DNA from: Nematopogon swammerdamellus
Taxonomy: Eukaryota; Arthropoda; Insecta; Lepidoptera; Adelidae
DNA: 64,000 nucleotides
Reading direction: 5' to 3'
Assembly: GCA_946902875.1 (NCBI GenBank)
Contig: OX336340.1
Span: 3,431,739-3,495,738, forward strand
Shown here: piece by piece, positions 6,201 through 62,595 of the stretch
Layout of the letters: each line of letters opens with the position of its first letter
Position numbering within the stretch: position 1 is the stretch's first letter
Translations under genes and position numbers: made by a program
Notes under the pieces: model-generated
Told to the model about the DNA's origin: nothing
What the model saw: only the letters and a program-made list of their open reading frames with translations
Database searches by the model: none

Positions 6201-6226
6201 GACCGTGCGCTTATCCATTGTCGCAG

Positions 6227-18156: not shown

Positions 18157-18292
18157 CAGTGATAGGAATAAGTAGGGCTTATTTACCTAAATTTCGAGGA
18201 ACAGAGTAAAAGATTGGAGACTTCCTTAAGACAAAATTTTTTTCCGGTTTAATAATATTCATGGTGTTTTAATTTCGCGATTTGAAAAAAGT

Positions 18293-19848
18293 GGCCACCA
18301 TTTTGAACTTTTTAGTTACTGGACCGATTGCTTTCAAAATCGATATCTGGGTGTCAGTGTGGGCTCTGAATACGAATCTGAAGTAAAAATTTAAAAAAGT
18401 GGCCGCCATTTTGAACTTTTTAGTTACTGGACCGATTTCTTTCAAAATCGATATATGGGCGTCTGTGTGGACTCTGGATACGAATCTATAGTCAAAATTT
18501 AAAAAAAGTAGCCGCCATTTTGAACCTTTTAGTTACTGGACCGATTGCTTTCAAAATCGATATCTAGGCGTCTGTGTGGACTCAGAATACGAATCTGTAG
18601 TCAAAATAAAAAAGAAGTGGCCGCCATTTTGAACTTTTTAGTTACTGGGCCGATTTCTTTCAAAATCGATATCTGGGTGTCTATGTAGGCTCTGAATACG
18701 AATCCGTTGTCAAAATTTAAAAAGTGACCGCCATTTTGAACTTTTTAGTTACTGGACCGATTGCTTTCAAAATCGATATCTGGGTGTATGTGTGGGCTCT
18801 GAATACGAATCTGTAGTAAACATTTAAAAAAAGTGGCCGCCATTTTGAACTTTTTAGTTACTGGACCGATTGCTTTCAAAATCGATATCTGGGTGTCTAT
18901 GTGGGCTCTGAATACGAATCCGATGTCAAAATAAAAAAAAATGGCCGCCATTTTGAACTTTTTAGTTACTGGACCGATTGCTTTCAAAATCGATATCTGG
19001 GTGTATGTGTGGGCTCTGAATACCAATCTGTAGTAAACATTTAAAAAAAGTGGCCGCCATTTTGAACTTTTTAGTTACTGGACCGATTGCTTTCAAAATC
19101 GATATCTGGGTGTCTATGTGGGCTCTGAATACGAATCCGTTGTCAAAATTTAAAAAAAGTGGCCGCCATTTTGAACTTTTTAGTTACTGGACCGATTGCT
19201 TTCAAAATCGATATCTGGCTGTATGTGTGGGCTCTGAATACGAATCTGTAGTAAAAAATTAAAAAAAGTGGCCGCCATTTTGAACTTTTTAGTTACTGGA
19301 CCGATTGCTTTCAAAATCGATATCTGGGTGTCTGTGTGGGCTCTGAATACGAATCCGTTGTCAAAATTAAAAAAAATGGCCGCCATTTTGAACTTTTTAG
19401 TTACTGGACCGATTGCTTTCAAAATCGATATCTGGGTGTATGTGTGGGCTCTGAATACCAATCTGTATTAAACATTTAAAAAAAGTGGCCGCCATTTTGA
19501 ACTTTTTAGTTACTGGACCGATTGCTTTCAAAATCGATATCTGGGTGTCTATGTGGGCTCTGAATACGAATCCGTTGTCAAAATTTAAAAAAAGTGGCCG
19601 CCATTTTGAACTTTTTAGTTACTGGACCGATTGCTTTCAAAATCGATATCTGGCTGTATGTGTGGGCTCTGAATACGAATCTGTAGTAAAAAATTAAAAA
19701 AAGTGGCCGCCATTTTGAACTTTTTAGTTACTGGACCGATTGCTTTCAAAATCGATATCTGGGTGTCTGTGTGGGCTCTGAATACGAATCCGTTGTCAAA
19801 ATAAAAAAAAGTGGCCGCCATTTTGAACTTATTAGTTACTGGGCCGAT
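18293..19848 (+). repeat. Left arm: 15 tandem units of about 109 bp
   Basis: The motif gccgccattttgaac (or close variants) begins units near 18293, 18401, 18510, 18619, 18725, 18835, 18943, 19052, 19161, 19270, 19378, 19487, 19596, 19705 and 19813. Spacing is 106-110. A four-unit, 435-bp higher-order repeat is visible: 19050-19262 and 19485-19697 are translated identically. Confidence 0.9.
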
Positions 19849-21110
19849 ACACCCAGATATCGATTTTGAAAGCAATCGGTCCAGTAACTAAAAAGTTCAA
19901 AATGGCGGCCACTTTTTTTTAATTTTGATTACAGATTCGTATTCAGAGCCCACACATACACCCAGATATCGATTTTGAAAGTAATCGGTCCAGTAACTAA
20001 AAAGTTCAAAATGGCGGTCACTTTTTTAAATTTTGACAACGGATTCGTATTCAGAGCCTACATAGACACCCAGATATCGATTTTGAAAGCAATCGGTCCA
20101 GTAACTAAAAAGTTCAAAATGGCGGCCACTTTTTTTTAAATTTTGACTACAGATTCGTATTCAGAGCCCACACAGACACCCAGATATCGATTTTGAAAGC
20201 AATCGGTCCAGTAACTAAAAAGTTCAAAATGGCGGCCACTTTTTTTTAATTTTGACTACAGATTAGTATTCAGAGCCCACACAGACACCCAGATATCGAT
20301 TTTGAAAGCAATCGGTCCAGTAACTAAAAAGTTCAAAATGGCGGCCACTTTTTTTTATTTTTACTACAGATTCGTATTCAGAGCCCCCACATACACCCAG
20401 ATATCGATTTTGAAAGCAATCGGTCCAGTAACTAAAAAGTTCAAAATGGCGGCCACTTTTTTTTAATTTTGATTACAGATTCGTATTCAGAGCCCACACA
20501 GACACCCAGATATCGATTTTGAAAGTAATCAGTCCAGTAACTAAAAAGTTCAAAATGGCGGTCACTTTTTAAAATTTTGACAACGGATTCGTATTCAGAG
20601 CCTACATAGACACCCAGATATCGATTTTGAAAGCAATCGGTCCAGTAACTAAAAAGTTCAAAATGGCGGCCACTTTTTTTTAAATTTGACTACAGATTAG
20701 TATTCAGAGCCCACACAGACACCCAGATATCGATTTTGAAAGCAATCGGTCCACTAACTAAAAAGTTCAAAATGGCGGCCACTTTATTTTTATTTTGACT
20801 ACAGATTCGTATTCAGAGCCCACACAGACACCCAGATATCGATTTTGAAAGTAATCGGTCCAGTAACTAAAAAGTTCAAAATGGCGGTCACTTTTTTAAA
20901 TTTTGACAACGGATTCGTATTCAGAGCCTACATAGACACCCAGATATCGATTTTGAAAGCAATCGGTCCAGTAAATAAAAAGTTCAAAATGGCGGCTACT
21001 TTTTTTAAATTTGACTACAGATTCGTATTCAGAGTCCACACTGACACCCAGATATCGATTTTGAAAGCAATCGGTCCAGTAACTAAAAAGTTCAAAATGG
21101 CGGCCATTTT
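19849..21110 (-). repeat. Right arm: 12 tandem units in opposite orientation
   Basis: The complement motif 'gttcaaaatggcggccac' recurs about every 109 bp from about 19890 to 21100. The switch is abrupt: after ttactgggccgat at 19848 the sequence resumes as acacccagatatcgattttg, without a unique spacer. Confidence 0.9.
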
Positions 21111-21244
21111 TTTTAAATCGCGAAATTATAACACCATGAATATTATTAAACCGGAAAAAAATATTGTCGTAAGGAAGTCTCAAATTTTTTACTCTGTTCC
21201 TCGAAGTTTAGGTAAATAAGTCCTACCTATTCCTATCACTGATA

Positions 21245-26120: not shown

Positions 26121-26514
26121 ATATTAATTAATTAAAAATAAAACTAAAATTGGTGCAGTACCTACTAGAAGAAACGAGTAGGTAATAATGAAAATAAATA
26201 ACAATTTATTAAAAAACCAAAAGTGAAAAAGTAAAACGAAAACGAGAAACAACCCTAGGTACACGAAAACAAACCGAAAGAAGAATTACAAAAAAAAATA
26301 TACACGAACAAGTCGAAATGGCGACAACTGCAAGGATCTTAACTGGATTTTGTAGTGTAAAACGAATGGGAGAATCTGAGCCCTTCATGACCAAGCGGTG
26401 AAGTCTTAACCTCGTTTCCGATAGTTCTGAGTGGGTTCGAACCTGTCGACTTGCACCACTTTGAAAACACACTCGTCGTCGGCAGATTCAGTAATGTGAT
26501 GTGTGTTGCGGCAG

Positions 26515-27218
26515 GATACTCGGGCCGGATCCTGTGCATGCGCGTGACGCGCGAGTCGCAGTACCTGCTCACCGGCTCCGAGGACACCGCTATCATCGTG
26601 TGGGATCTGCACACGCTCGCAGGCAGACTCAGTAATGTGATGTGTGTTGCGGCAGGACACTCGGGCCGGATCCTGTGCATGTGCGTGACGCGCGAGTCGC
26701 AGTACCTGCTCACCGGCTCCGAGGACACCGCTATCATCGTGTGGGACCTGCACACTCTCGCCGGCAGACTCAGTAATGTGATGTGTGTTGCGGCAGGACA
26801 CTCGGGCCGGATCCTGTGCATGTGCGTGACGCGCGAGTCGCAGTACCTGCTCAACGGCTCCGAGGACACCGCCATCATCGTGTGGGACCTGCACACTCTC
26901 GCCGGCAGACTCAGTAATGTGATTTGTGTTGCGGCAGGACACTCGGGCCGGATCCTGTGCATGTGCGTGACGCGCGAGTCGCAGTACCTGTTCACCGGCT
27001 CCGAGGACACCGCTATCATCGTGTGGGACCTGCACACTCGTCGCCGGCAGACTCAGTAATGTGATGTCTGTTGCGGCAGGACACTCGGGCCGGATCCTGT
27101 GCATGTGCGTGACGCGCGAGTCGCAGTACCTGCTCACCGGCTCCGAGGACACCGCTATCATCGTGTGGGACCTGCACACGCTCGCCGGCACTCAGTAATG
27201 TGATGTGTGTTGCGGCAG
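26515..27218 (+). pseudogene. NWD2: Exon-2 copies 1-5, with acceptor but no donor
   Basis: Copies begin after AG at 26515, 26656, 26797, 26938 and 27080. Each encodes GHSGRILCMCVT, then SQYLLTGSEDTAIIVWDLHT; copy 1 has Tyr for His and Arg for Cys, and copy 3 has Asn for Thr. They are nearly identical to the functional copy, so the duplication is recent or homogenised. Joining exon 1 to any of them leads to an early stop, so they should act as decoy acceptors or lead to decayed or shortened transcripts. An assembly error affecting one or two bases cannot be excluded. Confidence 0.75.
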
Positions 27219-27342
27219 GACACTCGGGCCGGATCCTGTGCATGTGCGTGACGCGCGAGTCGCAGTACCTGCTCACCGGCTCCGAGGACACCGCTATCAT
27301 CGTATGGGACCTGCACACGCTCGCCATTAAACTGAAGATTGT
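27219..27342 (+). CDS. NWD2: Exon 2: WD40 blade (sixth array copy)
   Basis: The acceptor is gttgcggcag/GA and the donor GATTGT/gtgagt. It has 124 nt and enters with two bases that complete the Gly begun in exon 1. It is a textbook WD40 blade: GH, then RILCMCVTRESQYLLTG, SEDTAIIVWDLH. It ends ALKLKI-type (LAIKLKI) plus two bases that form Val with exon 3. The Asp of SED and the Trp-Asp of VWD are present. This is the only member of the six-copy array that keeps both the frame and a donor, so it is chosen as the working exon. Confidence 0.85.
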
Positions 27343-35432: not shown

Positions 35433-35565
35433 GTCACCGATTAACGCGATGGAGATCACCGATGACAACGTGTTCCTCGTGACCCTGGAGGATGACAACG
35501 AGCTACACCTCCGCACCCTGGTCACCGGCACACACCTCCACACACTCAAGCGGCATAAAGCTAAG
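35433..35565 (+). CDS. NWD2: Exon 5: WD40 blade
   Basis: 133 nt. The acceptor is tttcattcag/G and the donor GCTAAG/gtatga. The first base completes the Arg from exon 4; it ends on a codon boundary. It reads SPINAMEITDDNVFLVTLE, DDNELHLRTLVTG, THLHTLKRHKAK. The blade lacks Trp (LHL in place of VWD) and is followed by RH in place of GH for the next blade. Its last 55 nt and its donor are the seed of the 114-bp array immediately downstream. Confidence 0.85.
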
Positions 35566-37094
35566 GTATGAACTGTAGCTGTCCCTTCCCTTGCCCCTCA
35601 CTAGGTGGTAGGCTTAAACGGTAGCCGCACCCTGGTCACCGGCACACACCTCCACACACTCAAGCGGCATTAAGCTAAGGTATGAACTGTAGCTGTCCCT
35701 TCCCTTGCCCCTCACCAGGTGGGAGGCTCAAACAGCAGCCGCACCCTCATCACCGGCACACACCTCCACACACTCAAGCGGCATAAAGCTAAGGTATAAA
35801 CTGTAGCTGCCCCTTCCCTTGCCCCTCACTAGGTGGTAGGCTCAAACGGTAGCCGCACCCTGGTCACCGGCACACACCTCCACACACTCAAGCGGCATAA
35901 AGCTAAGGTATGAACTGTAGCTGTCCCTTCCCTTGCCCCTCACTAGGTGGTAGGCTCAAACGGTAGCCGCACCCTGGTCACCGGCACACACCTCCACACA
36001 CTCAAGCGGCATAAAACTAAGGTATGAACTGTAGCTGTCCCTTCCCTTGCCCCTCACTAAGGTGGTAGGATCAAACGTACCCGCACCCTGGTCACCGGCA
36101 CACACCTCCACACACTCAAGCGGCATAAAGCTAAGGTATGAACTGTAGCTGCCCCTCCCTTGCCCCTCACCAGGTGGTAGGATCAAATCGTAGCTACACC
36201 CAGGTCACCGGCACACACCTCCACACACTCAAGCGGCATTAAGCTAAGGTATGAACTGTAGCTGTCCCTTCCCTTGCCCCTCACTAAGGTAGTAGGATCA
36301 AACGTAGCCGCACCCTGATCACCGGCACACACCTCCACACACGCAAGCGGCATAAAGCTAAGGTATGAACTGTAGCTGTCCCTTCCCTTGCCCCTCACTA
36401 GGTGGTAGGCTCAAACGGTAGCCGCACCCTGGTCACCGGCACACACCTCCACACACTCAAGCGGCATAAAGCTAAGGTATGAACTGTAGCTGTCCCTTCC
36501 CTTGCCCCTCACTAGGTGGTAGGCTCAAACGGTAGCCGCACCCTGGTCACCGGCACACACCTCCACACACTCAAGCGGCATAAAACTAAGGTATGAACTG
36601 TAGCTGTCCCTTCCCTTGCCCCTCACTAAGGTGGTAGGATCAAACGTACCCGCACCCTGGTCACCGGCACACACCTCCACACACTCAAGCGGCATAAAGC
36701 TAAGGTATGAACTGTAGCTGCCCCTCCCTTGCCCCTCACCAGGTGGTAGTATCAAATCGTAGCTACACCCAGGTCACCGGCACACACCTCCACACACTCA
36801 AGCGGCATTAAGCTAAGGTATGAACTGTAGCTGTCCCTTCCCTTGCCCCTCACTAAGGTAGTAGGATCAAACGTAGCCGCACCCTGATCACCGGCACACA
36901 CCTCCACACACGCAAGCGGCATAAAGCTAAGGTATGAACTGTAGCTGTCCCTTCCCTTGCCCCTCACCAGGTGGTAGGCTCAAACAGTAGCCGCACCCTG
37001 ATCACCGGCACACACCTCCACACACTCAAGCAGCATAAAACTAAGGTATGAACTGTAGCTGTGCCTTCTCTTGCCTGCCCCTCACTCAAATTGC
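35511..37094 (+). repeat. 14-unit, 114-bp array of exon 5 end, donor and SINE module
   Basis: Unit starts (ccgcaccc or variant): 35511 (real exon), 35625, 35739, 35853, 35967, 36081, 36194, 36308, 36422, 36536, 36650, 36763, 36877, 36991. Each unit has 55 nt of exon 5, the donor aag/gta(t/a), then SINE module (tgtcccttcccttgcccctc, actaggtggtaggctcaaac). The last unit runs into S4 body (ccgactgtattggtaccacc), showing that the array grew where an S4 copy sat just after the donor. A 569-bp, five-unit block is itself duplicated: 35956-36398 equals 36525-36967 apart from single-base differences. Confidence 0.93.
35719..37045 (+). other. Candidate 75-nt cassette exons inside the array
   Basis: In six units the SINE pyrimidine tract ends in CAG or TAG exactly 75 nt before the duplicated donor: 35719-35793, 35833-35907, 35947-36021, 36402-36476, 36516-36590 and 36971-37045. 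Each is 25 codons with no stop (V-V/G-G-S-N, then SRTL-V/I-TGTHLHTLKRHK) and has phase 0 at both ends, matching the exon 5/exon 6 junction. The first unit (35605-35679) has an in-frame TAA, and units with 'actaaggt' are one base short. Use as exons is unproven. Confidence 0.5.
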
Positions 37095-37403
37095 AGCCGA
37101 CTGTATTGGTACCACCGTACTGGACGTAAGATGACCGCGTACCGGCTCTCGGCGCTGTAACTCAGATCTCCACCAGACCATCGGTAATTTTCGGTTACAT
37201 TACATACACAGTAACCATATAAGGCAGCTATATCCTGATTTAGTTCATACCTCTTTATCCTAAGCCTACTTCAATAGTATGCTCTCAGAGTAATAATAGC
37301 TATAGACCTCGCGTACTCTACCTCTTGGTACGTAAGTGAAGTGTGTAAGGAGATGTTCCATACAACTAGCCTAATAAATAAGGAGGAATTTCTATAACCT
37401 ATC

Positions 37404-38355
37404 CAGTGGCGGCTGGTGACTTCAGTGACCGGTAGTGCGCTAAGTACCTACCTACTTAAATACCAAATTACCCAACACATTCCCCTCATGCTATTTTAAG
37501 ATCGGGACTTCCGATTTTTTTAAATGCCTTCGTTTAATAAATTATGTACGTACCTAGTATGAATATTCTCAAGACACTCAATGAGTTGCAAAAAACAAGA
37601 AAAGAAATCCAAACAACTTTTTAACTAATTTTAGTACCTTTATGAACACATCCATAGATCACAACACTACTGCAGCTTTAAAAAAGAAAACAGTAGTAAT
37701 GCCCCAAAAATACTAAAAAAAATATATAAAAAAAATAAAAGCATTTGAAAAGTAGGAATTGAACCCGGGATCACCTGATTGTAAAGCCTTACCTTTAACA
37801 AACGCTTAGGCAAATATCGGCACCACTTAATTCACAGTATCACACAGAAAACACAAAACCTAACCATATCACATTTTAAATATTCGCGCGCTAACGGGTA
37901 TGGACATCACATGACAGCGCGCTGACTCTAGCTAGACAGACGGACCCGTGCAAAACGAATCGCTCGCGACGCGACGCGTCGCACGCGCGGCTATTCACGA
38001 TATAGCGTCCTTGTTTGGCGCTCGTGCACCGCACGCAGAACTCCATTTCGGCCCATACTGTTTCTATGACGTATCTTTGTCTCACGCGCCAGCGGTGTTT
38101 TGCCGATCTCCATACATTCAGCATGGGAGACCTGCGTGCGCTCTCCGATTCCGCACGGGGCGCGCGTTTACTCGCAAAAAAGTGTCTTGTGATCTATAAA
38201 ATAAGGTCGAATTCACATTCGTATTTATTTGGAGTACGATCTTTATGGTTTTAATGTAGGTATATTGTAAGATATTATTTATTTTGAGTGAAGTGAAGAC
38301 TTCTCGTGGTATGGTAGTGCGGCGCACGAGCGCACTTTAGGACCAGCCGCCAGTG
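37404..38355. mobile_element. hAT-type MITE, 952 bp, 8-bp target duplication
   Basis: Ends are inverted (cagtggcggctggt at 37404; accagccgccagtg ending at 38355), and the element is bracketed by AACCTATC at 37396-37403 and 38356-38363. CAG-starting ends and an 8-bp duplication are the hallmarks of hAT transposons. No transposase-like frame; the interior includes a tRNA-like 'gaattgaacccgggatcacc' stretch near 37757. Confidence 0.85.
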
Positions 38356-38419
38356 AACCTATCCATCTATATGTGGGTGTGTTTCCCGAATCCTTTAACC
38401 TGAAAGCACGTCGCACTAT

Positions 38420-38832
38420 GCGACCGTTGGAGGCTGACCGTGGTTCGGATTCCACGTAAAACTGTTGGCCCGTTACCTTGGGTGGGTAGGGTTTGTACTA
38501 CCGCCCGCCCGGGTTGTTGGTACCACCGCACTGAATGAAACGTCTGTCGAAACTGTAAATAGTTCGTTTTTTTCATCCAGTTCAGTGCAGCCGACATTAA
38601 ATAAGAGAAGCACTGACTTGGCACCTAGTTCACCCAAGGTTATGGGCTGACATCACGGATGTTGTAGTTTAAGTAGCCAACCGTGTCAGTTCGTTTTTTT
38701 CATCCAGTTCAGTGCAGCCGACATTAAATAAGAGAAGCACTGACTTGGCACCTAGTTCACCCAAGGTTATGGGCTGACATCACGGATGTTGTAGTTTAAG
38801 TAGCCAACCGTGTCAGTTTCTATAAAAAAAAA
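38420..38832 (+). repeat. SINE S1, headless, with duplicated tail
   Basis: Begins at 'gaccgttggaggctgaccgt' and continues through the module. The block from 'tcgtttttttcatccagttc' to 'aaccgtgtcagtt' is duplicated in tandem (38565-38690 and 38690-38815) with identical private variants, so the duplication is recent. Confidence 0.8.
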
Positions 38833-38955
38833 CTTGCAAAATGCTAAATATGCTAAATGTGAAAATATGACGAATCCGAATGCAGTGTACTGTCTATCAA
38901 TGACGAATAAAGAATAAAAAATTGGGTGTCTGTAAAGTCGGTTTACGGACGATAG

Positions 38956-39285
38956 TTTTACGTGATAACGTCATAAAGTGGTAAGACTACTTTAAATTTC
39001 TGCTGCCCTCGTACTTTAGACATGAATATTCTAAATTTGAAATCTTTTCCGACCGGCCAGATGCGCTTAGTATATAATGGTACGAGTAACCTCCTTTTAA
39101 TTTCTGCTGCCCTGGTACTTTAGAACCAGAGAGATAAATGTATACAAGCCGACGCTTGAGCCGATTGTGCCTCTCTATCGCTTGTTACGCGCTCTCGCTT
39201 GCACACACAGGCTCAGATGGAACGTGACACTTTTTCGTGCATGCAGCCGGTGTTCATCAATTTATAAGACGTTATCACGTCAAAA
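38956..39285. mobile_element. MITE with acgtgataacgtc ends
   Basis: Ends ttttacgtgataacgtc (38956-38972) and gacgttatcacgtcaaaa (to 39285) are inverted. The body has a duplicated 'aatttctgctgccct' segment at about 38996 and 39099. No coding sequence. Confidence 0.65.
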
Positions 39286-39552
39286 ATAAAGCCTGCATGT
39301 GTATCCTTACACATGTGACTTTATTATACCCGTCTTACTCCTAATATTCTGATAGGCGCGCTCTATATGGTTTAGTATTGTTACTCTGAGAGATTGCCCT
39401 TTGGCAAAACCGCTTTCGAAACTTGAGAAGCGAGTTCGTTGAGCAACTTAATCAAAGAGTTTGGTTTCAGCCGAACGAATCGAGAAGAAATTTTCATTAA
39501 CCTGGCTCATGTTCGCGGTTGGTTTTTTATTAGAAATTCTTTTGAAATTTAA

Positions 39553-39665
39553 CCATGACATGGCGATACGGAACGCTCGGTGCGCGAGTTCGACTCGCAC
39601 TTGGCCGGTTTTTTTTTAAACTGACACGGTTGGCTACATCTACTACATCCTCCATGTCACCCTTT
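39553..39665. repeat. End of a 'gttccgta' element joined to a SINE tail scrap
   Basis: 39553-39616 is the 3' end ('gactcgcacttggccggttt'). 39617-39665 is a reverse S1/S2 tail start ('actgacacggttggctacat'). Confidence 0.65.
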
Positions 39666-39904
39666 CGCAGCGGGGCCGGGCGTCGCGGTGGAGTAGTGGA
39701 CTGTATGTTGGTTGTGGCGGGTAGATGACGAAAACTCGTAGCCTCGGAAAAAAGATGTATTGCAGAGGAGATACAGCGGTGAATAGAAAGATATTTTAGC
39801 GAGCATTTATGTTAATTCTAGACCTATCAGTAGTGACGTTACATTACTGTTGACCAATCACAGCTCGCCTGTGTCGCCATTACCTCGGCGCCCCAGGCCG
39901 CTTT

Positions 39905-40065
39905 CACAGGAAGTGTCTATTCGTAGGTGTATACCTGCATGCAGGTATACCTACGAATAGCCCTGTCCGATCGGGAATGTCTATTCGTAGGTATACCTAC
40001 GAATAGCCCTGCCCGATCGGGAATGTCTATTCGTAGGTAATCCTGCATGCAGGTATGCAAACTGC
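39905..40065. repeat. Tandem palindromes
   Basis: 39917-39960 is a near-perfect 44-bp palindrome (one 2-nt bulge). 39981-40006 is a perfect 26-bp palindrome with half-site ctattcgtaggta. A further half-palindrome follows at 40026-40058. They are separated by 'gatcgggaatgt'-type spacers. The same bracket sequence (tacctacgaatagccctgcc) returns at about 40685. Confidence 0.8.
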
Positions 40066-40720
40066 ACTATGGGAGTTTTCAACGAAACGTAACAAAAACG
40101 ACATGCGCCGCCTCAACATTAGGTTAGGGTTAAATTATAGAAGATGCGTCGCGTAGCCTACGAATACCTCATACCTGCGAATAGCACTGTCCCGCCCGCT
40201 TGGTAAGTCTATTCGTAGGAAATCAAATACATGGTGCGGCGCGAAAACTTGCTGATTTGTATTTCGCGCCAAGCGGCGAGGTGGGGTCGGGAAAGACTCG
40301 TTCGAAACACGAAATCATGAAGTTTTGTTATCCGCATAGTCAGTTCGCGCCATGAATTGGACCAACGAGCAGCGCGCGTATGCCGTCGAGGCGTACTTTT
40401 TTACTGGCCGTTCCAGCGCCTCATGTCATGTCAACAGTCATGTCAACTCAGTGCATCGACAATGAGGACCGTCATTTGACAGATATCATCTTCAAAACTA
40501 TTTAATAAAAAAAATTTGATGATTTATGTTACAAAAAAAATAAATTACAGTGATATCTCTACTACTTTTTTTTTTATTGACTTTTCAAATCAGCAAGTTT
40601 CCGCGCCGCACCCTGTAGGACACTCCCAGTTCTTAGTTAATAATCTCTGTTTGGCATATCTACGAGTTCTTAATTAATAATCTATGTTTGGCGTACCTAC
40701 GAATAGCCCTGCCCGCTTTC
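40066..40720. repeat. Nested repeat block bracketed by cctacgaatag
   Basis: The bracket occurs at about 40158-40187, 40205-40220 and 40680-40700. Inside is the MITE-like 'cgccgcctcaacattaggtt' also seen inverted near 2600. No exon. Confidence 0.45.
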
Positions 40721-40744
40721 ACACGGGTTGAGCTGACCATCGTT

Positions 40745-40905
40745 CGGTACGAAACACAGCCCATAACACCTTGGTGAACTAGATGCCATGTCAGTGCTTC
40801 CCTTCGGTAGTGCCGGCTACACTGGACTGGACGCAAAACACGAACTATTTTTCCATAGCCTTTTCAAGCGACCTTTCATTCAGTTCTGCGTTTGAAGATA
40901 GTACG
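40745..40905 (-). repeat. SINE S1/S2 body fragment
   Basis: The complement of 'gtgttttgcgtccagtccag' and neighbouring body blocks. Lacks head and tail. Confidence 0.65.
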
Positions 40906-41929
40906 ATCATTGACCCCGTACAATGCAAGTTACCTACTGTTACACACAGGTTAATTAGGTAGCAAACATGTTTTGTTAAATTTCTCGAAAAGTAATGCTA
41001 AAAACATATAATTTTTTTTGGCGTAACGTGTTTATTTGAGTGTCTATGTAACCCTCCCGAATTTTTTGACATAAATAACGAAGCACTTATATACACTGGA
41101 TTATGTAAACAATTCGTAGTGGCCATGTTAACTTCGCCGATTATCCCCTCATTGCATCAGACAGCCCCATTAGCTAAAACTGCCTCGGAGTTTCCCGGCC
41201 TCCATTGCGGGTCTCAACTAAGAACCCTTAATTTTCCTCATTTCGCTGAAACGTGTTAAGTTACGCGCTATCTGGCTGGTCCGATCTCTCTCGTGCTGTG
41301 TGGGTGAGTTTTCGCGTATGCGGGCGCGACTAGGGTTACCAGATGGAAAATTCAAAAAGCCCAATTTCCATAGAAAAATCCTGACATTTTGATGCAAACG
41401 TAATTACCTTTCAAATAGTTGTTTATGCTTTGGCGCGGGGGCAGGACTCACTGGTCGAACTGCATTTCATCTAAATTTTCAAACTTAATTTCATATCAAC
41501 TCAAACGCCAACCAAAGATGGTAAAAATCTATATGTAATTTAAGCTTATTTAATTTGCCAAATATTACCAAAGTTGTTGGTAAAGATCGTTATATGTTTC
41601 TGTTTAAGTATATTGTGCTGTGTAATTTTCTCTAATTAGTAATTACATTACCGTTTGTATAAATTTCTAATAATAAAATAAAATTAAAAAAAAAATGTGC
41701 TGTACTTCATTGAAGAATCGAAAAATTCTGACAGTTCAAAAATCCGGCCGCAATCCTGACAAGAGCCTAAAAATCCTGACATGTCACGACAAATCCTGAC
41801 GTATGGTAAATTGGTAACCCTAGGCACGACTGAATGTGCGGATGGAGGACGTAGAACCATGTCGAATTTTTGAAAGACTTTATCAAGCGGGACGTCAACC
41901 ATTGCAGGATGTAGTATTTGTATGATGAA
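40906..41929. other. Intron sequence, nothing recognised
   Basis: AT-rich with no splice-flanked coding segment. The phrase 'aatcctgac' recurs loosely around 41380, 41750 and 41790, which may be an old repeat split in two. Confidence 0.35.
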
Positions 41930-42120
41930 CTACCAATCGGTTTCGCAGATCTTTCCTCCACATAACTGGTAAACTCTGGAACGCTCTCCCTGCCCACATA
42001 TTTCCCCCCAAGTATAGTCTCGGGTCCTTCAAGTGATACAGCCACCGGACGTACGGACGGACGGGCGGACGGACGGACGGACAGACGGACAGACGACGTA
42101 GGCTTAGTTATAGGCTTCCG
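41930..42120 (+). repeat. LINE tail fragment and GGAC minisatellite
   Basis: 41930-42035 matches the LINE C-terminal/3' region (cagatctttcctccacataa, agtctcgggtccttcaag). 42050-42095 is a run of ggac/cgga repeats adjoining the end of a 'gttccgta'-type element. Confidence 0.6.
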
Positions 42121-42699
42121 TACGCGGTACGGAAAGCAAATAATGGTTTAGGCCAATGTAGAGACAGTAACACGCGCGTGACCGTATCGTGTGACAGACA
42201 GATTAAAAATGAGACTCTCACCCATAAGAGTTTCCTTTTACAATATATTTATTTTACAGTATATTTCTTTTACAGTACATAAACATAAAGTGCTCGTGAT
42301 AACGGGCCAAACGTTTGGCCCGAAAAGTCGAGCCACACAGCCACATGAAGGACGTTAGTGCAAAACTATTTAAAAATAACATGGGACATAAAATATTGCT
42401 CACATTTAATTAAATGTCTTTTCTTTTCGCAATATTCGTATTAAAAATATGAGCTAATAAAATATTTTCAAATTACTTACTATGAAAACATTCAAATAAA
42501 TTGTATGACATAGAAATGAGAATTCGAAATGAAACACCTACAACAGATTGGACGCTTTTATTTCTATTGATAAAAATTTATCTAGGAATATTGGGATAGC
42601 TAAAACAAATTTTCTCCTTTTAACCGACTTCATTCAGTGTATTTTAATCAAACTACCTTTAGTAGTTTAAATCAAATACATTAATTACATTTAAGTACT

Positions 42700-43135
42700 T
42701 TTTTTTTTTTTTTATGGAAACTGACACCTTTGTGGCTACATCACCTACAACATCCGTGATGTCAGCCCATAACACCGGGTGAACTAGGTGTCATGTCAGT
42801 GCTTCCCTTCATTTCGCGCCGGCTACACTGAACTGGACGGAAAACACGAACTATTTACATAGCCGTTTCGACCGACGTTTCGCTTAGAGCGGTGGTACCA
42901 ACCCGGCCGGGATAAACCCTACCACCTAGTAAGGTAAGAAGAAGAAGGGTGAACTAGGTGGTAGAACCCTACCACCTAGTTCACCTTGTGTTATGGGCTG
43001 ACATCACGGATGTTGTAGGTGATGTAGCCAACCGTGTCAGGTTCCATAAAAAAAAAAAAAAAAAAAAAAGAAGGGACCTACAGTTTAACGTGGAATCCGA
43101 ACCACGGTCAGCCTCCAACGGTCGGGCGGTCAACG
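42700..43135 (-). repeat. SINE S1 with a second tail inserted in reverse
   Basis: An S1 copy in minus orientation runs from 42700 to the module at about 42945. A plus-oriented tail (42970-43068, ending in about 21 A) intervenes, then S1 minus resumes ('gggacctacagtttaacgtg') to 43135. The reverse tail landed inside the SINE module. Confidence 0.75.
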
Positions 43136-43506
43136 GTCCATTAATTTGAACAGGGCAATCTTCGTTTTCTGAAAAAAAAAACTATTTATGGGAAATACGT
43201 TTATGTTTTCGTCTAATGTAAAATCTTACCGCGGGGTGGCGCCGCTAGGGTTGCCACGTGCCCGGGATTTCCGGGACTGTCCCGGGCTAGGCTCCAATGT
43301 CCCGTGTCCCGGGCGAAGGATCATTTTGTCCCGCGAGAGTGCAATTTGTCCCGGGAAGAAAAATATGTTTGTGAATACGACTTGACGTCGCAAAGGAGCC
43401 GGCGAACAGAAGTCCAGATGCTGATAAGTTACTCAAATTAGCAACTCACAAGAAATATGATAATTTGTAAAGAAAGATTCTGTTTTCATTTTAGTGTAGT
43501 GTTGTA

Positions 43507-43846
43507 CCGTGTGGGCCCGGTACTTAAAAAGAATAGCCTCACTGCATCTCTCCCCGTGCATGTCGTAAAAGGCGACTAAGGGATAAGGACAAGATGCCGT
43601 GCTAAAGGGCGACAGGCTCGCCACCTCTGACCTTGGCACGGTACTTCCACCGAGTCATGCAGCAGGTGGGTCTTCGTGCCTTACTTGCTGCTTGATCGAT
43701 TGAATCTTGTTCGAATAATTTGCGAAACGTGGTGGTCGGTGTTGTGCTGTAATTTACCAAAGTTCTTGCAGCACAACACCGATTACTCTGCTTACCCCAA
43801 TTGTCCGGATTCAGCGTGTGTGATATGTATATGTGTGTATGTATGT
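43507..43846 (+). repeat. SINE family S3, full-length reference copy
   Basis: Head 'gtgtgggcccggtacttaaa', 'gtcgtaaaaggcgactaagg', 'aagggcgacaggctcgccac', 'ttacttgctgcttgatcgat', 'caacaccgattactctgctt', ending in a TATG/TGTG microsatellite. Confidence 0.85.
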
Positions 43847-44284
43847 GCAGTGTTGCTTACTAAAGTTGTTCGCTATAAAAAAAAATTCTAAAAGATCGCC
43901 AAACAATTTGCAACAGAAAAATATTGGTCTTTCATTTCTCCACCTTATTTATAAAGGACTGCAGATAGTAGATATGTCCCGGAAAGGCTGAAATCAGATC
44001 TGGCAAGCCTAGGCGCCGCCGCACGACTCCTGACGACGAGCGACGCTCACTGTGACCGCAGCATAAGACTAATGCTCGTCGGTCACACGCAAAACGATCG
44101 TGCACCGCGGTGCAAGTGTATGTATTTAGACGTTGTAAGATCGAATTAGACATTAGATTGCTTGTATATTAATTTCGCGAATTAATTTGTATCTAAAACA
44201 CATTTTTATTCCGGCTGAATTGCCATTCCATTTTATCTAAACTAAACCAACAATTATAAACTGAAATGTATAAACATATAACAT

Positions 44285-44520
44285 CATTATCCTTCCTTAC
44301 CTATAATAAAATCCAACGTCTGCTTTCTGTCTGAGTGTCTTCTTCTGTCCGCTTATAACTCGAGAACCACTGAACCGATTTTAATAAAACAAAATTCTAC
44401 GGATGGCTTGATTCTTCCCATCAACTATAGGCTACTTACTATCACGCTAAATGGCTTATGAGGTTAGCAGTGAAGTGAAATATGAAAGCGGGCGGAGCCG
44501 CGGGCACAGCTTGTCAATAC
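44285..44520 (+). mobile_element. Helitron-like non-autonomous repeat
   Basis: Has 'ctataataaaatccaacgtc', 'cttataactcgagaaccact', 'gaaccgattttaataaaac' and the end 'ggcggagccgcgggcacagc', a layout typical of the common lepidopteran Helitron-like family. Confidence 0.6.
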
Positions 44521-44529
44521 TAATAATAA

Positions 44530-44870
44530 AATATGTAATTAATGGTCATGGAGTAAGTCACTTGGTTTTATGAGATATTGCATTTGTAGACTCTATGTAT
44601 GATATTAAACCTAAATTGACGATTTTTGAAAATATTTTCTGTATGTATGTATGTTCCTCCGATGTTAAACCGATCATCCGAATTCGATTAAACTTAGCAC
44701 AAGCACATTTAACTATACGAGATACAGGATAGGCTAAATAATATTTTGTTACGACTTCGCTAAGATGTGGCTCTCATACAAACCGAATTGCGGTAGCGGG
44801 CTTACTTACTTCCTTTTTTTTTAATACCTACTAATTTCACGCGAGCGAAGCCGCGGGAAATAACTATTAA
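44530..44870 (-). mobile_element. Helitron-like repeat, inverted partner of 4675-5070
   Basis: Contains complements of the 4675-5070 body and ends 'tcacgcgagcgaagccgcgg' at about 44838-44857. Confidence 0.55.
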
Positions 44871-45204
44871 AAAATAAATGTACAATCTTAACTGAAATGT
44901 ATAAACACATTCAGGTTACTACTTGTAGATTGTATGTAAGCCTAATCATGACAAGCCAAATCCTCCCGAGTTATTTCAAAGTTTGCGGGATAGAATGTTT
45001 GACATGGGGAGTCTCCAGTCAACTCTATTACACAAATTACCCTGCCCTTCTGTTGCACAGATTGGACAGTGGACGGACACCCGAGATTATGTATGCGAGA
45101 AACGTATATTGTACTAGCTTTATTGTGCAGCTCCGCTCGCGTTGTTGTCGGGCTTGGGCGAAGTTTCTGAAGTATGCTTAGATACTCGTATAGTATGTTA
45201 CAGT

Positions 45205-45420
45205 ACCGTGCGGGGTCGTCGGTACTTAAAAAGAATAGCCTCACCTCACTGCATCTCCCCCCGTGCATGTCGTAAAAGGAGACTAAGGGATAAGGACAAG
45301 ATGCTGTGCATAAGTTCGACAGGCTAGCCACCTCTCACCTTGGCATGGTTCTTCCACCAAGTCTTGTAGCAGGTGGGTCTTCTTGCCTTACTTGCTGCTT
45401 GATAGCTGCTTGATAATTTG
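45205..45420 (+). repeat. SINE S3, 3' truncated
   Basis: Head to 'ttacttgctgcttgatagct', then stops. Contains a 5-bp duplication (cctcacctcac) in the head. Confidence 0.75.
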
Positions 45421-46355
45421 CTTATTATAAGTTTAATTTATTTTCACCTATGTATATAAATTTTTTTTTTTGTTCTAATTATTGTTCATTTTTCTTTTGT
45501 TTTGTCACTGCTCTAACTAAATTAAGCAAGTAGTATACAAACGTTTAGGAACTATATCTGTGTTGTATGTTACTGGCAACACCAGAGACTATGAAGAAGA
45601 ATATAGACACTTGCTTTGGTACAAACAAACGGTTGTTTTATTAAACAGAACAATGTCGGTCAATTAGTCAATTATATGTTTTGTAATTTTTCTTTTAACA
45701 TGTTATGACATATTTCTGTTGTTTGTGCCAATAAATATATAAATCCGTTATTGCGGCTCGATCTCTTTGAACTTCCTCGTCACGCGTTCTCTAATAAAAT
45801 ATTATATCGATGGCTACCACTGACTCCAACTAAATGCCCCATTTCCTTTGGATTTTTCGGAAAAGCCGGCTCGCGGGCCTCCAGTCCGGCCCGCGAATCT
45901 GTTTAATCCGACCCGCGCAGACAGACCGACAAACTGAAAGACAGACAGAGTGACAAGACAGACGCAGCGTTTTATAATATGTCGTAGAGAAGAGATGTTA
46001 CATGAATAGGGAGGGAGTCAGCCAGGGACTACTTAACGGCGTACACATAATATATCACTGGCCGTCTGCCCGCTGGTAATAATTAAAGCAAAATTAAATT
46101 GGGTTTTCTGTACGAGCTCCCATTAGTCCGAACGCTAATGGAGATTAATCCTGTTTGCGTATTCCTAATTGTTTTTACGGCAGTAACACGCCGCGCGATA
46201 GGTGCAGAGTACCTATTGTGTTCTACCTAATGGCGTGTCGTCCAGTTGTTATAATGATGTTAGCATACTTGATTAGAATCCCAATTAGTTGCCAAAATCG
46301 TTTATCCCTCTTAGAAGAGCTTTGCAGCATTTAGTTCTTGAAATTGGCCTTTTTC
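45421..46355. other. Intron sequence, nothing recognised
   Basis: No exon. A 'gacagaccgacaaactgaaa' patch (45930-45965) resembles the run in 'gttccgta' elements but lacks their ends. Confidence 0.35.
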
Positions 46356-46620
46356 AGTCAGTCAGTCAGTCAGCGTGTAAGCGTCCACTGCTGGACATAC
46401 GCCTCTCCAATTTTCCTCCAGTCCTCCCGGCCTTCAGCGATACGGAACCACTGCTTTCCGCCGACGTACTTGATGTCGTCGTCCCACTTGGCGGGTGGTC
46501 TTCCCGCACTCCGTTTTCCTGTTCACGGCCGCCAGTGTAGGACACGGTTACTCCAACGGTCATCGTCTCTTCGGCTAACTTGCCCAGCCCACTGCCACTT
46601 GAGCTTTGGCTTTTTGAGTT
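46356..46620 (-). pseudogene. RTE-type LINE reverse transcriptase C-terminus
   Basis: Minus-strand translation gives GKRSAGRPPAKWDDDIKYVG, GKQWFRIAEGREDWRKIGE, then AYVQQ-like residues blurred by the CAGT microsatellite at 46356-46373. This is a characteristic RTE end. About 250 bp only. Confidence 0.7.
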
Positions 46621-47244
46621 ATTCAATAATAGTTCCTCAAAATCTGAGACACAAAACAGTAAAAGTCGCCATCATATGAGTTCGTAAATCTATAGAGCAA
46701 AAATCCTGCACAGCACCTCGAAAACTAAATCTCAAGAAACATAATTTCGCGTCGCCCTACTAGCGCGCAGCCTCCTCCAACCACCACCACTTCCCCGCGT
46801 TTGCACTCGTAATGCACCCCTCGTAGCCGCGTCGTCGCCGCGTGGCCAAAACGCGCTACTAGATAATCCGTAGATAGCTACTGGCATGGTACCTACCTGA
46901 CTGAGTGCAGTTTCGTGAGGGGAGATGAATTTGGTCCTGTCGCCTGCGCCTTTGTCTGTGGCTGTAGATTGTGCCGAAACAGCCACCCATACAAGTTTTC
47001 ATAACAAAAAATTGTTCTTCACCTTCTACGAATTTACAGTTCCAATCTAAACATGACTTCCTTTTCTTGAAATGAAACGACTCGCGCGAGCTTTGAATTA
47101 TAAATTAGAAATATCTTAAACATTTATCGACATTTCGATCCACCGACGCCTGGCGGCCGGCGAGCGGTGATCGAACCGGTAGTCGCCAGCCGTAGACGGA
47201 AAAAATAGCCAGCATGGCGATGCCGCCGTATTGATCTTAAAAGG

Positions 47245-48112
47245 ACGATATGACGTTGATGTTGATGATAACTATGTAAATTATGAAACTGTCATCGATG
47301 TTGACGCTGATGATGATGACTTGACCGAAGATAGTGGTAATGACAACGACCTTGACGTTGATGATGATGACTCTACCGTCGATAGTGATAATGACAACGG
47401 CGTTGACGTTGATGATAATAACTTTACCGACGATAGTGGTAATGACATCGACATGGACGTTGATGATGATGACTTAGCTTTGCTGACGATAGTGGTAATG
47501 ACAACGACGACGTTGATGTTGATGATAAAGACTTTGCCGACGATATTGATAATAACACCGACGTCGACGTTGATTATGATGACTTTACCGACGATTTTTG
47601 GACTTTACCGGCGGTAGTAGTAATGACACCGATGTTGACGTAGATGATGATGACTTTACCGACGATAGTGGTAATGACACCGATGTTGACGTTGATGGTG
47701 ATGACTTTACCAACGGTAGTAGTAATGACACCGATGTTGGCGTTGATGATAATAACTTTACCGACGATAGTGGTAATGACATCGACATGGACGTTGATGA
47801 TGATGACTTAGCTTTGCTGACGATAGTGGTAATAACAACGACGATGTTGATGTTGATGATAAAGACTTTACCGACGATATTGATAATAACACCGACGTCG
47901 ACGTTGATTATGATGACTTTACCGACGATTTTTGGACTTTACCGGCGGTAGTAGTAATGACGTAGATGATGATGACTTTACCGACGATAGTGGTAATGAC
48001 ACCGATGTTTACGTTGATGGTGATGACTTTACCAACGGTATTAGTAATGACACCGATGTTCACGTTTATCACACTGATATTAACGATGATGGTGATGTTG
48101 AAGATGATGGAT
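47245..48112 (+). repeat. 51-bp minisatellite encoding Asp-rich frames, ending at exon 6
   Basis: Unit gacgttgatgatgatgactt, taccgacgatagtggtaatg, acaccgatgtt, about 17 copies with decay. Because 51 is a multiple of 3, several frames stay open; one reads VDVDDDDFTDDSGND. A 334-bp higher-order block is duplicated (47598 and 47932 begin the same segment). It stops about 18 nt before the exon 6 acceptor. Probably intronic. Confidence 0.85.
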
Positions 48113-48130
48113 CTTTTGTTTTGCACGCAG

Positions 48131-48302
48131 GTGAAGTGTTTCTGCCTGGCGCGCGACTCGTCTCGCGCGGCAGTCGGCTGCGCGGACCAGCGCGCCTACA
48201 TCTACAGCCTGCACAGTGGTCAACTCCTGCGCACGCTGCCCACCGCACACGATCTCACCGCGCTCGCGGTCACCGATCACGATCATTTCTTGCTCGCTGC
48301 CG
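48131..48302 (+). CDS. NWD2: Exon 6: two WD40 half-blades
   Basis: The acceptor is gttttgcacgcag/GTG and the donor GCTGCCG/gtatgc. It has 172 nt, entering on a codon boundary and leaving one base. It reads VKCFCLARDSSRAAVGCAD, QRAYIYSLHSGQLLRTLPT, then AHDLTALAVTDHDHFLLAA. CADQRAYIYSL is a WD strand with Tyr-Ser in place of Trp-Asp. The next blade continues across the intron into exon 7. The exon is GC-rich and directly follows the Asp-rich minisatellite; its own frame is also open back into the minisatellite but there reads unconserved Thr/Met/Val repeats. Confidence 0.85.
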
Positions 48303-49378: not shown

Positions 49379-49610
49379 ACAAATTTTAGGTGCTCCCCGC
49401 CCATAGACTTATATATAATATTATTTCTCAATGTCCCCGCCGCCACTGCCCCTGATTTCGCCTCTTATTTAGGGGAGTGAGGAGGCCGCCTCACTTATCC
49501 TAATATAACCGTTGGATTGGGGTTGTAGTGTTGGAGCTATAGCTATATCTATCCATTTACGAACTGGGCAGAGAGAGTAAATAAATAAACAAAACTAATT
49601 TGCATTTCAG

Positions 49611-49729
49611 GAGGCAACAGGGTGACGATTTACTCATTCCACACAGAGGACCACCTCACTAACTTTAGACCAACGAAGCAGAAAAAACGGAGACAAACCA
49701 AGTCGACAACATCGCTCAGCTTATTGCAG
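49611..49729 (+). CDS. NWD2: Exon 7: end of a WD blade and a basic linker
   Basis: The acceptor is tttgcatttcag/GA and the donor TTGCAG/gtttga. It has 119 nt; the first two bases complete a Gly, and it ends on a codon boundary. It reads GNRVTIYSFHTEDHLTNF, finishing the blade from exon 6 (VTIYSF in place of the W-D strand). RPTKQKKRRQTKS follows, a lysine/arginine cluster like a nuclear-localisation or acidic-lipid-binding patch, then TTSLSLLQ. This linker separates two groups of WD blades, as expected between two propellers. Confidence 0.8.
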
Positions 49730-57732: not shown

Positions 57733-58084
57733 GTGTTCACGGAGACGGCATCGTCGCGATATAATATGATCGGACGTCGACGCAGCGTGTCACACCCAGA
57801 GCGCATCGCCTGTATCACTTTTTCCTCCGACATATTCACCCGCCACTGACACGAGCGCACCACCCTTGCGGCCATAGCACCCGCACTGTGTCACGACTCC
57901 ATCATGGAGCAATCATTTGAAAGTCGTTGCACGCTCTAGGCCTACTGCCGGGATACCACCAATTTGGTCCCGGTGACGCGCATTGACTGCGGTCCCCCCC
58001 CCCCCCCCCCCCCCCCTTGGAGGGGGAGAACCTCATTACCGGCTCCGAGGACTTGTCGCTCAAGAATGATTCATTAACCCACAG
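57733..58084 (+). pseudogene. NWD2: Decayed exon 10 copy A
   Basis: 57733-57831 is a damaged copy of exon 10 from its acceptor (attatag/gtgttcac...gagacggcatcgtcgcgata, later cgacgcagcgtgtcacaccc) to cctccgac. After about 190 nt of other sequence, including a run of about 20 C (57997-58016), the end of a copy resumes (gaacctcattaccggctccg, then gtcgctcaag) and passes into attcattaacccacag. It is broken by stops and indels. Confidence 0.7.
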
Positions 58085-58204
58085 GTGTTCGCCGACGGAG
58101 ACAACACGGCCAAGATCTGGTCGGTGTCCGGGTGCGACAGCGGCGAGGAGCGACGCAGCGTGTCGCACGCGGAGCGCATCACCTGTCCCGCTCTCACCTC
58201 CGAC
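58085..58204 (+). pseudogene. NWD2: Exon 10 copy B, cut by an insertion
   Basis: Acceptor attcattaacccacag/GTG, then VFADGDNTAKIWSVSGC, DSGEERRSVSHAERITC, identical to exon 10 except Pro for Leu (CPALTSD). It breaks after ACCTCCGAC, where a 975-bp insertion begins. The rest of the copy resumes at 59189. Without the insertion it would be an exact 182-bp tandem duplicate lacking a donor. Confidence 0.85.
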
Positions 58205-59179
58205 AAACTTTCTTTTCTATCATTTGTTTTGATTTACGTTTTTGTTTATAGACGTCCAGAGATACCAGCCTTTCGGCTACAAAATCCAGACGTCTACTAC
58301 CTGCACTCTTGCGAGTACAGTGATCATGTATGCCAGATCGAGGCCCCATAGCTGCTCTATCGAACATCCGTTCTTCCGAAATAATCCCATGGGAAACACA
58401 GGCTGCGACCTTTCCCCAGCCGATCCGAGCCACCACCCGTCCACCCGAAGGAACCCCCGACCGAAGTCGAGAGCCGGGGGTGAAGCCTTCACTGCCACTG
58501 GGGTCAGCACCCTATCCAACCGCAACCTGTGCCCAGGGCCTCAGCGTTTTGTACTAGCCCAAAGGCTTTTGTTTTCACCAGCTATGTATATGCGTGGAAG
58601 TGCATATGACCACCACCTAATGTGTACCGGGGATCCACCGTTCTCGAATGACAGACTTACGTCAGCGTCATTAGCTCGTGAGAAGTCCATCCCACATCCA
58701 CATATAAGTGTGTGTAGCACCGACATACCGATCTACATTATTCGCATGTCTACCAATTCTCCACATTGGTTACGGAGCTCTAAGTGGCTCACCACTCGCA
58801 GCTTTCGCTACTTATTCCCGTGTTAGGTGCTTTAACTACACAAGTACGGAAGCACCAGGGAATCAACGCTAAACCACAACCCCTGCGAGACCAACTCCAG
58901 TGTTCCGTGCAGAAGCACGAAGCATTCTGGGGCTTTTAACGGAACCCCGCAGTACTCAACCCAGCGTTTAGGGTGGTATCTCATTTGACCCACCGACCTG
59001 AGTGGAGTCAGCAGCGTGAGCTAAGAGGAGGCCGAAACCCCCAACTTAGTACTCATGTTAGACTAGCAACGTTTAATGAGTAATCGTCGAGAACAAGTTC
59101 TCTACCACACATTATTTCTAACAGTGACGCCCGTTACACCGCCCAGTTGCGGGATAGGGTAGCCAACTGCTAATTTTTA
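58205..59179. mobile_element. 975-bp insertion with 9-bp target duplication, unclassified
   Basis: ACCTCCGAC lies on both sides (58196-58204, 59180-59188), a new duplication of exon sequence. No inverted ends are seen. The left edge on the minus strand is A-rich (aaaacgtaaatcaaaacaaa), as in the 3' tail of a minus-oriented retroposon. Frames of up to 194 codons exist (58242-58826 plus) but I recognise no domain. It is not present elsewhere in the window. Confidence 0.7.
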
Positions 59180-59188
59180 ACCTCCGAC

Positions 59189-59250
59189 AGCCAGAACCTC
59201 ATCACCGGCTCCGAGGACATGTCGCTCAAGACTGAATCATTAACCCACAG
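59189..59250 (+). pseudogene. NWD2: End of exon 10 copy B plus duplicated intron end
   Basis: Reads SQNLITGSEDMSLK, then goes directly into actgaatcattaacccacag, the acceptor of the working exon, with no donor. Exon part (162 nt) plus intron part (20 nt) equal the 182-bp unit. Confidence 0.85.
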
Positions 59251-59445
59251 GTGTTCGCCGACGGAGACAACACGGCCAAGATCTGGTCGGTGTCCGGGTG
59301 CGACAGCGGCGAGGAGCGACGCAGCGTGTCGCACGCGGAGCGCATCACCTGCCTCGCTCTCACCTCCGACAGCCAGAACCTCATTACCGGCTCCGAGGAC
59401 ATGTCGCTCAAGGTGTGGCAGTTGGATGGAGGGAAGCTATCGCAG
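59251..59445 (+). CDS. NWD2: Exon 10: WD40 blade (third, complete copy)
   Basis: The acceptor is attaacccacag/GTG and the donor TCGCAG/gttcgt. It has 195 nt, phase 0 at both ends. It reads VFADGDNTAKIWSVSG, SHAERITCLALTSDSQNL, ITGSEDMSLKVWQLDGG. Two W strands (AKIWSV, LKVWQL) and a SED turn are seen. It is the last member of a three-member tandem duplication and the only one with the KVWQLDGGKLSQ end and a donor, so it is the working exon. The acceptor of copy B upstream is just as good and could compete. Confidence 0.88.
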
Positions 59446-62576: not shown

Positions 62577-62595
62577 GAAATCATTTTATTTCCAG

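What the first reader, a model, noticed from the sequence alone, without database searches (positions are those of the whole stretch)
35511..37094. Exon-SINE hybrid array creating up to six in-frame 75-nt cassette exons
Fourteen 114-bp units each combine the last 55 nt of exon 5 and its GT donor with a SINE pyrimidine tract ending in AG. In six units the AG-to-donor distance is exactly 75 nt, with no stop and phase 0 at both ends, matching the exon 5/exon 6 junction. Each would add 25 residues, mostly a repeat of the exon 5 blade edge (RTLVTGTHLHTLKRHKAK). The array could give variable-length WD proteins by splicing, or it may only be a decoy-donor cluster.
Basis: partly seen in the sequence, partly recalled or inferred. 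Interest (0 to 1): 0.88.

Follow-up and report, generated by a model that had tools for sequence, protein, structure and literature searches.

The report
Exon fragment and SINE tandem array
In a moth-type gene, the tail of one exon and part of a mobile element next to it have been copied fourteen times in a row, leaving a row of possible extra mini-exons that look like unselected by-products rather than a working splicing device.

Summary
Fourteen 113-114-bp units start at 35511; each joins the last 55 nt of exon 5, its donor and a SINE pyrimidine tract. Of 13 AG-to-donor mini-exons, 6 are 75 nt, open and phase 0/0, 3 are 75 nt with TAA, 4 are 74 nt (frameshift).

The gene is a lepidopteran qui-1/NWD1, intact in the window. 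The junction lies in a loop between two WD blades of a modelled orthologue.

Against a working cassette system:
- An open in-frame hybrid exon is a one-in-three accident, then copied.
- Copies show no coding constraint: 7 nonsynonymous, 1 synonymous, 1 nonsense.
- 7 of 13 mini-exons would break the message.
- Neighbours are 38-40 nt apart, so at most four cassettes fit together unless introns under 45 nt are spliced.
- 0 of 120 listed homologues (586 matched) have an insert there.

For it: good donors, pyrimidine-rich acceptors of disputed strength.

Best reading: a neutral exon/SINE minisatellite with latent cassettes. Whether any is spliced in needs RNA.

The parts
   Evidence: aligned to 23 orthologues (22 with lepidopteran names, one unnamed)
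35511..37105 (+). tandem array: 14 units, each 55 nt of exon 5 plus 58-59 nt of donor and SINE; unit 14 runs into the SINE remainder
35853..36990 (+). higher-order repeat: units 4-8 (569 bp) and units 9-13 (569 bp) differ at 3 positions
35719..35793 (+). latent cassette, 75 nt, open, phase 0/0 (CAG acceptor; its donor is the variant GTATAA)
35833..35907 (+). latent cassette, 75 nt, open, phase 0/0 (TAG acceptor)
35947..36021 (+). latent cassette, 75 nt, open, phase 0/0 (TAG acceptor)
36402..36476 (+). latent cassette, 75 nt, open, phase 0/0 (TAG acceptor)
36516..36590 (+). latent cassette, 75 nt, open, phase 0/0 (TAG acceptor)
36971..37045 (+). latent cassette, 75 nt, open, phase 0/0 (CAG acceptor)
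35605..35679 (+). 75-nt mini-exon with in-frame TAA (same TAA also in 36174-36248 and 36743-36817)
36062..36135 (+). 74-nt, frameshifting mini-exon with TAAG acceptor (likewise 36289-36362, 36631-36704, 36858-36931)
37085..37153 (+). remainder of the inserted SINE downstream of the array
   Evidence: 78-88% identity to 7 other places in the window
48131..48302 (+). exon 6, phase 0 start, native partner of the exon 5 donor (12.6-kb intron)

Best explanation
A SINE inserted about 5 nt downstream of the exon 5 donor (inferred from where the SINE similarity begins). A tandem duplication then joined a point inside the SINE to a point 55 nt before the end of exon 5, across a 3-bp match (CCG), making a 114-bp unit of exon tail, donor, and SINE pyrimidine tract with AG. 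Unequal exchange raised it to 14 copies, with one recent 5-unit block duplication (inferred). Every unit after the first happens to hold a complete mini-exon: acceptor from the SINE, about 20 nt of SINE, 55 nt of exon 5, donor. The splicing machinery most likely keeps using the first donor (35565 to 48131) and removes the rest as intron. Rare inclusion of one mini-exon would give +25 residues in 6 cases and a stop or frameshift in 7 cases, most of it presumably lost by nonsense-mediated decay. The array is a neutral minisatellite that carries latent cassettes; it is not a selected isoform generator. Shown here: anatomy, frames, gene integrity within the window, pattern of substitutions. Inferred: order of events and splicing outcome.
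For: Anatomy and frames. SINE copies elsewhere in the window carry the same tract and AG. CCG match at the junction. Block duplication with 3 mismatches in 569 bp. Among 9 distinct changes in the exon part, 7 are nonsynonymous, 1 synonymous, 1 nonsense; counting every possible change, 68-71% would be nonsynonymous, so no deficit. 7 of 13 mini-exons not usable. 32.5% of simulated junctions are open and in frame, so one lucky junction copied many times suffices. Reading past the first donor meets TGA at 35569. 0 of 120 listed homologues have an insert at the site. Another exon of the gene (27219-27342) has five extra acceptors from a similar duplication, and all five lose the frame; a third exon (59251-59445) has partial copies, frame not tested. 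Arrays meet exons no more than expected under shifting (P 0.14-0.60).
Against: Donors are good (13 of 14 are AAG|GTATGA, 97.7th percentile of 3,943 GT sites under a 13-site matrix of this gene; the variant is at the 85th). The acceptors have 15 of 17 pyrimidines against 6-13 in the 14 native sites, and under a vertebrate matrix recalled from memory they rank within the native range, mostly near its top, so inclusion is quite possible. All 14 GT and all 13 AG are kept. The substitution test rests on 9 changes only, so weak selection is not excluded. The insertion point is a loop that might tolerate extra residues.
Confidence: 0.8

Rival explanations
1. The array is a working set of alternative cassettes: one to four 25-residue inserts are spliced between exons 5 and 6 and lengthen the loop between two WD blades.
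For: Six open 75-nt phase-0 mini-exons; good donors; pyrimidine-rich acceptors; insertion point in an inter-blade loop of the modelled orthologue, strand 258-262, loop 263-268, strand 269-274.
Against: No coding constraint among copies; 7 of 13 mini-exons are damaging; adjacent ones can hardly be joined; under the gene's own 14-site matrix the acceptors of the six open cassettes rank only at the 11th (TAG, four) and 44th (CAG, two) percentile of 3,231 AG sites, native ones at the 76th-99.8th; none of 120 listed homologues has it.
Confidence: 0.06
2. The array acts as a decoy or poison-exon cluster: many donors and damaging mini-exons capture splicing factors and lower or tune the output of the gene, or the row of U1 sites protects the long intron from early polyadenylation.
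For: 14 donors in 1.5 kb at the start of a 12.6-kb intron; 7 of 13 mini-exons would give a stop or frameshift.
Against: Nothing here shows selection or effect; the first donor is an identical copy and lies nearest the native acceptor.
Confidence: 0.07
3. Copy number in the assembly is wrong (collapsed or expanded), although a shorter real array exists.
For: Units 4-8 and 9-13 differ at only 3 of 569 positions, a pattern that a mis-join could also give.
Against: Several of the other units carry their own variants and the exons on both flanks are in order. Reads were not available and the genome search did not complete.
Confidence: 0.07

Closest known systems
SINE exonization (Alu and other SINEs; passages of PMC2394776 read)
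   Same: A SINE in an intron supplies a pyrimidine tract and AG that can serve as a 3' splice site; that paper tabulates exons to which an element gives only the 5' or 3' part.
   Different: Here the rest of the exon and the donor come from a duplicated piece of the neighbouring exon, the tract is internal to the element and not an inverted A-tail, and the hybrid is repeated.
Tandem genomic duplication creating splice sites (PMC4974935 abstract read; PMC3443670 passages read)
   Same: A duplicated segment crosses an exon-intron boundary and splice signals are inherited from the parent.
   Different: The potato case gives one new intron; here the gaps between units are 38-40 nt, too short for ordinary introns (minimum intron size is recalled), and the acceptor is from a SINE.
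Tandem duplicated or mutually exclusive exons (for example Dscam1; search listing only)
   Same: Repeated exons in a row with neighbours too close to be joined. A 5' splice site to branch point limit of about 50 nt is described in PMC7969005 (passages read).
   Different: Only a 55-nt tail is copied, extra copies would add to exon 5 rather than replace it, and no constraint on the copies is seen.

Membership tests
SINE exonization | A SINE supplies a splice site | tested here: met
   Tract and AG of the array unit align to dispersed SINE copies in the window; sequence potential only
SINE exonization | The SINE-derived sequence is present in mature transcripts | not testable with these tools
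   No transcript data; no near-identical protein was listed (best 76% identity)
SINE (tRNA-derived) | tRNA-related head with A and B boxes | tested here: inconclusive
   Head motifs with 0-3 mismatches at 4 places for both boxes (9101/9145, 13267/13311, 26088/26066 on the minus strand, 54913/54957) and a fifth (49014) for the A box only; ARAGORN 0 and Rfam 0; the copy at exon 5 lacks the head
[quoted passage not shown]
[quoted passage not shown]
   38-40 nt from a donor to the end of the next AG; the yardstick is general knowledge and PMC7969005 passages on a ~50-nt limit
Mutually exclusive tandem exons | Copies are whole exons kept by selection | tested here: not met
   55-nt tails only; 7 nonsynonymous, 1 synonymous, 1 nonsense among 9 changes
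Minisatellite | Head-to-tail copies | tested here: met
qui-1/NWD1 | Orthologous NACHT-WD protein, WD part | tested here: met
   Best 23 sequences at 74-76% over 100% of the query; one frame over 14 exons; window and these 23 form one clade, support 0.986
qui-1/NWD1 | NACHT part | not tested
   Upstream of the exons found in the window

The most novel reading that the evidence does not exclude
One duplication made a self-contained exon unit (SINE acceptor, SINE plus exon coding piece, exon donor) that is now copied as a block, so that copy-number change adds or removes optional 25-residue inserts in a WD protein. Within the 38-40-nt gap the only adenines upstream of the tract lie on the previous unit's donor region, so neighbouring cassettes would exclude each other by position, giving up to 29 insert-bearing in-frame messages with one to four inserts, varying between individuals with array length.
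Probability: 0.06. Interest if true: 0.75.

Novelty: new variant of a known kind. Interest (0 to 1): 0.33.

Why it matters
It is a clean example of how a mobile element beside an exon, plus one small duplication, can yield a complete exon in one step and then many copies. The parts (element acceptor, exon donor, frame, neighbour spacing) are known exactly, so long-read RNA from this insect would test directly how often such accidental exons are used and whether neighbour spacing alone excludes pairs. If none is used, it is a natural control showing how strongly the first donor wins.

Tried and rejected
Recursive splicing: the SINE has TAG|GTGGTA or CAG|GTGGTA, a zero-length-exon look, but GTGGTA is a poor donor by eye; not scored, not pursued. 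Special attraction of arrays to exons: 13 arrays (12 merged TRF rows of period 30 or more, plus the duplication at 58027-59445, chosen by me) touch or lie within 30 or 70 nt of 2-5 of 14 exons; with 20,000 circular shifts P is 0.14-0.60; no excess seen. Pseudogene: rejected after the two exons missing from my first assembly were found by tblastn at 49607-49729 and 62595-62681 and all 14 joined in frame. Unusual divergence: about 84% identity to the 23 best sequences against 91% among them; the tree puts the window as sister to those 23 with weak support (0.404), so an early branch is enough; species not determined.

Insert in homologues: my first pattern matched 30 of 120 sequences; an alignment of all 120 was then used and shows 38-40 residues in a 40-column stretch in each.

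Exchange between the native exon and the array: all 23 best orthologues have Ile where the native exon and 9 other units code Val, while units 3, 8, 13 and 14 code Ile. This hints that the native exon takes part in array turnover, but one or two back changes explain it as well; left open.

Acceptor strength: the two scorings disagree. Neither is decisive.

Fold search of the orthologue model listed 50 rows of other proteins, the best a highly repetitive propeller; not used. SINE family: passages of PMC3272025 on Helicoverpa SINEs were seen; the element here was not matched to a named family.

Papers: no whole text was read. Abstract and outline: PMC4974935. Passages: PMC7969005, PMC3272025, PMC2394776, PMC3443670. 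Seven searches answered, seen as listings, several of which showed only part of the matches; no title or abstract start listed there describes an exon/SINE hybrid array, which is no proof of absence.

Full report
WHAT IS THERE. The window carries, on the + strand, 14 exons of an insect WD gene. Joined with AG and GT sites they give one 732-residue frame without a stop. A protein search found 586 matches and listed 120; the best 23 sequences are at 74-76% BLASTP identity over the whole query. Of these, 22 bear lepidopteran names (two of them Plutella xylostella) and one, P0007, is unnamed; several sources call the protein qui-1 or NACHT domain- and WD repeat-containing protein 1. In a tree of 723 columns the window and these 23 form one clade with support 0.986. 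So the host gene is a lepidopteran qui-1/NWD1, intact in the part seen; the N-terminal NACHT part was not seen.

THE ARRAY. Exon 5 (35433-35565) ends AAG|GTATGA. From 35511 on, the last 55 nt of the exon, the donor and about 53 nt of SINE repeat 14 times with spacings 11 x 114 and 2 x 113 nt (TRF period 114, 13.7 copies). The intron half matches dispersed repeats in the window from its sixth base on; some of these have tRNA-like box A and box B sequence, though ARAGORN and Rfam find nothing. Downstream, unit 14 runs into further SINE sequence (37085-37153). Exon 5 and the SINE share CCG at the point where the units join. Units 4-8 and 9-13 are a 569-bp block duplication with 3 mismatches.

THE MINI-EXONS. 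Between each SINE AG and the next donor there are 13 stretches: 6 open 75-nt, 3 of 75 nt with TAA, 4 of 74 nt. The phase 0/0 claim holds, because exon 5 ends and exon 6 begins on a codon boundary.

IS THE FRAME SURPRISING? No. If the junction between a SINE copy and exon 5 is moved over 5,600 placements, 33% are in frame and 32.5% in frame and open. If all units descend from one junction, as the shared breakpoint suggests, the six open units count as one event, not six.

SELECTION. Against the unit consensus, which equals the native exon, the 55-nt exon part shows 9 distinct changes: 7 nonsynonymous, 1 synonymous, 1 nonsense. With every possible change counted, 68-71% would be nonsynonymous, 27-30% synonymous and 1-2% nonsense. 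There is no deficit of damaging changes. The sample is small, so weak constraint cannot be excluded.

SPLICE SIGNALS. A matrix from 13 native donors (exon 5 left out) puts AAG|GTATGA at the 97.7th percentile of 3,943 GT sites and the one variant at the 85th; native donors, each left out in turn, range from the 23rd to the 99.8th. A matrix from the 14 native acceptors puts the SINE acceptors at the 11th (TAG), 44th-47th (CAG) and 71st (TAAG) percentile of 3,231 AG sites; native ones, each left out in turn, from the 76th to the 99.8th. A vertebrate matrix from memory gives the 98th, 99.7th and 90th, with native ones from the 49th to the 99.9th. The tract has 15 of 17 pyrimidines, native ones 6 to 13; 0.9% of AG sites in the window, array included, reach 15. 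So donors are good and acceptors uncertain.

GEOMETRY. From a donor to the end of the next AG there are only 38-40 nt. Within that gap the adenines other than those in the last 6 nt lie 27-38 nt before the mini-exon, in the GTATGAACTGTAG of the previous unit's own donor region; further upstream lies that unit's exon tail. A limit of about 50 nt between 5' splice site and branch point is described in PMC7969005 (passages). Hence adjacent units should not be joined. With a minimum intron of 45, 60 or 100 nt the six open cassettes give 30 combinations including none, with at most four cassettes; with a limit of 30 nt all 64, with six. If exon 5 fails to use its first donor, TGA follows at 35569.

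PROTEIN SIDE. In an AlphaFold2 model of the Spodoptera orthologue (29 sequences, mean pLDDT 74.9, pTM 0.46, local pLDDT 87-89) the exon 5/exon 6 junction is residue 268/269: strand 258-262, loop 263-268, strand 269-274 (position). An insert would enter the loop between two blades and repeat the end of one strand, the next strand and the loop. That may be tolerated; it would not make a new blade (inference). All 120 listed homologues have 38-40 residues in a 40-column stretch over the junction, so none of them has a 25-residue insert.

SETTING. Other exons of this gene are hit too. The exon at 27219-27342 is preceded by five copies of its acceptor and first 106-108 nt (141-bp period); all five extra acceptors lose the frame into the next exon. 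The exon at 59251 has partial copies at 58027-58205 and 59180-59230. Circular shifting of the arrays shows that this many meetings with exons is expected in such an array-rich window.

VERDICT. A real, neatly built by-product of SINE insertion plus tandem duplication. Most likely it is removed as intron, with possible low-level inclusion. It is a new variant of known processes (element exonization; duplication across an exon boundary), and its use is testable by RNA. The own-genome search did not answer in seven tries, so other copies in the genome, reads and relatives' DNA were not examined.

Noticed in passing
26468-27325: 141-bp tandem array holding the acceptor and first ~107 nt of the exon at 27219-27342, six acceptors in all; only the last keeps the frame.
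   Followed up: partly
58027-59445: Partial duplications of the exon at 59251-59445 with its 20-nt intron end (unit about 182 bp), apparently split by a ~970-bp insert at 58206-59179 of unknown kind; no Rfam match; a weaker copy (82%) at 57778-57832.
   Followed up: partly
18280-21118: Two neighbouring arrays of about 109 bp (14.4 and 11.7 copies) whose consensus units look like reverse complements: a 2.8-kb near-palindrome in the intron.
   Followed up: no
5611-6201: 148-bp repeat, 4 copies, ending 25 nt before the acceptor of the first exon found in the window.
   Followed up: no
35511-35565 and array units 3, 8, 13, 14: All 23 best orthologues have Ile where the native exon has Val; four array units code Ile. 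Possible exchange between coding exon and array.
   Followed up: partly
47296-48066: Long degenerate array of a ~51-bp unit just upstream of exon 6.
   Followed up: no
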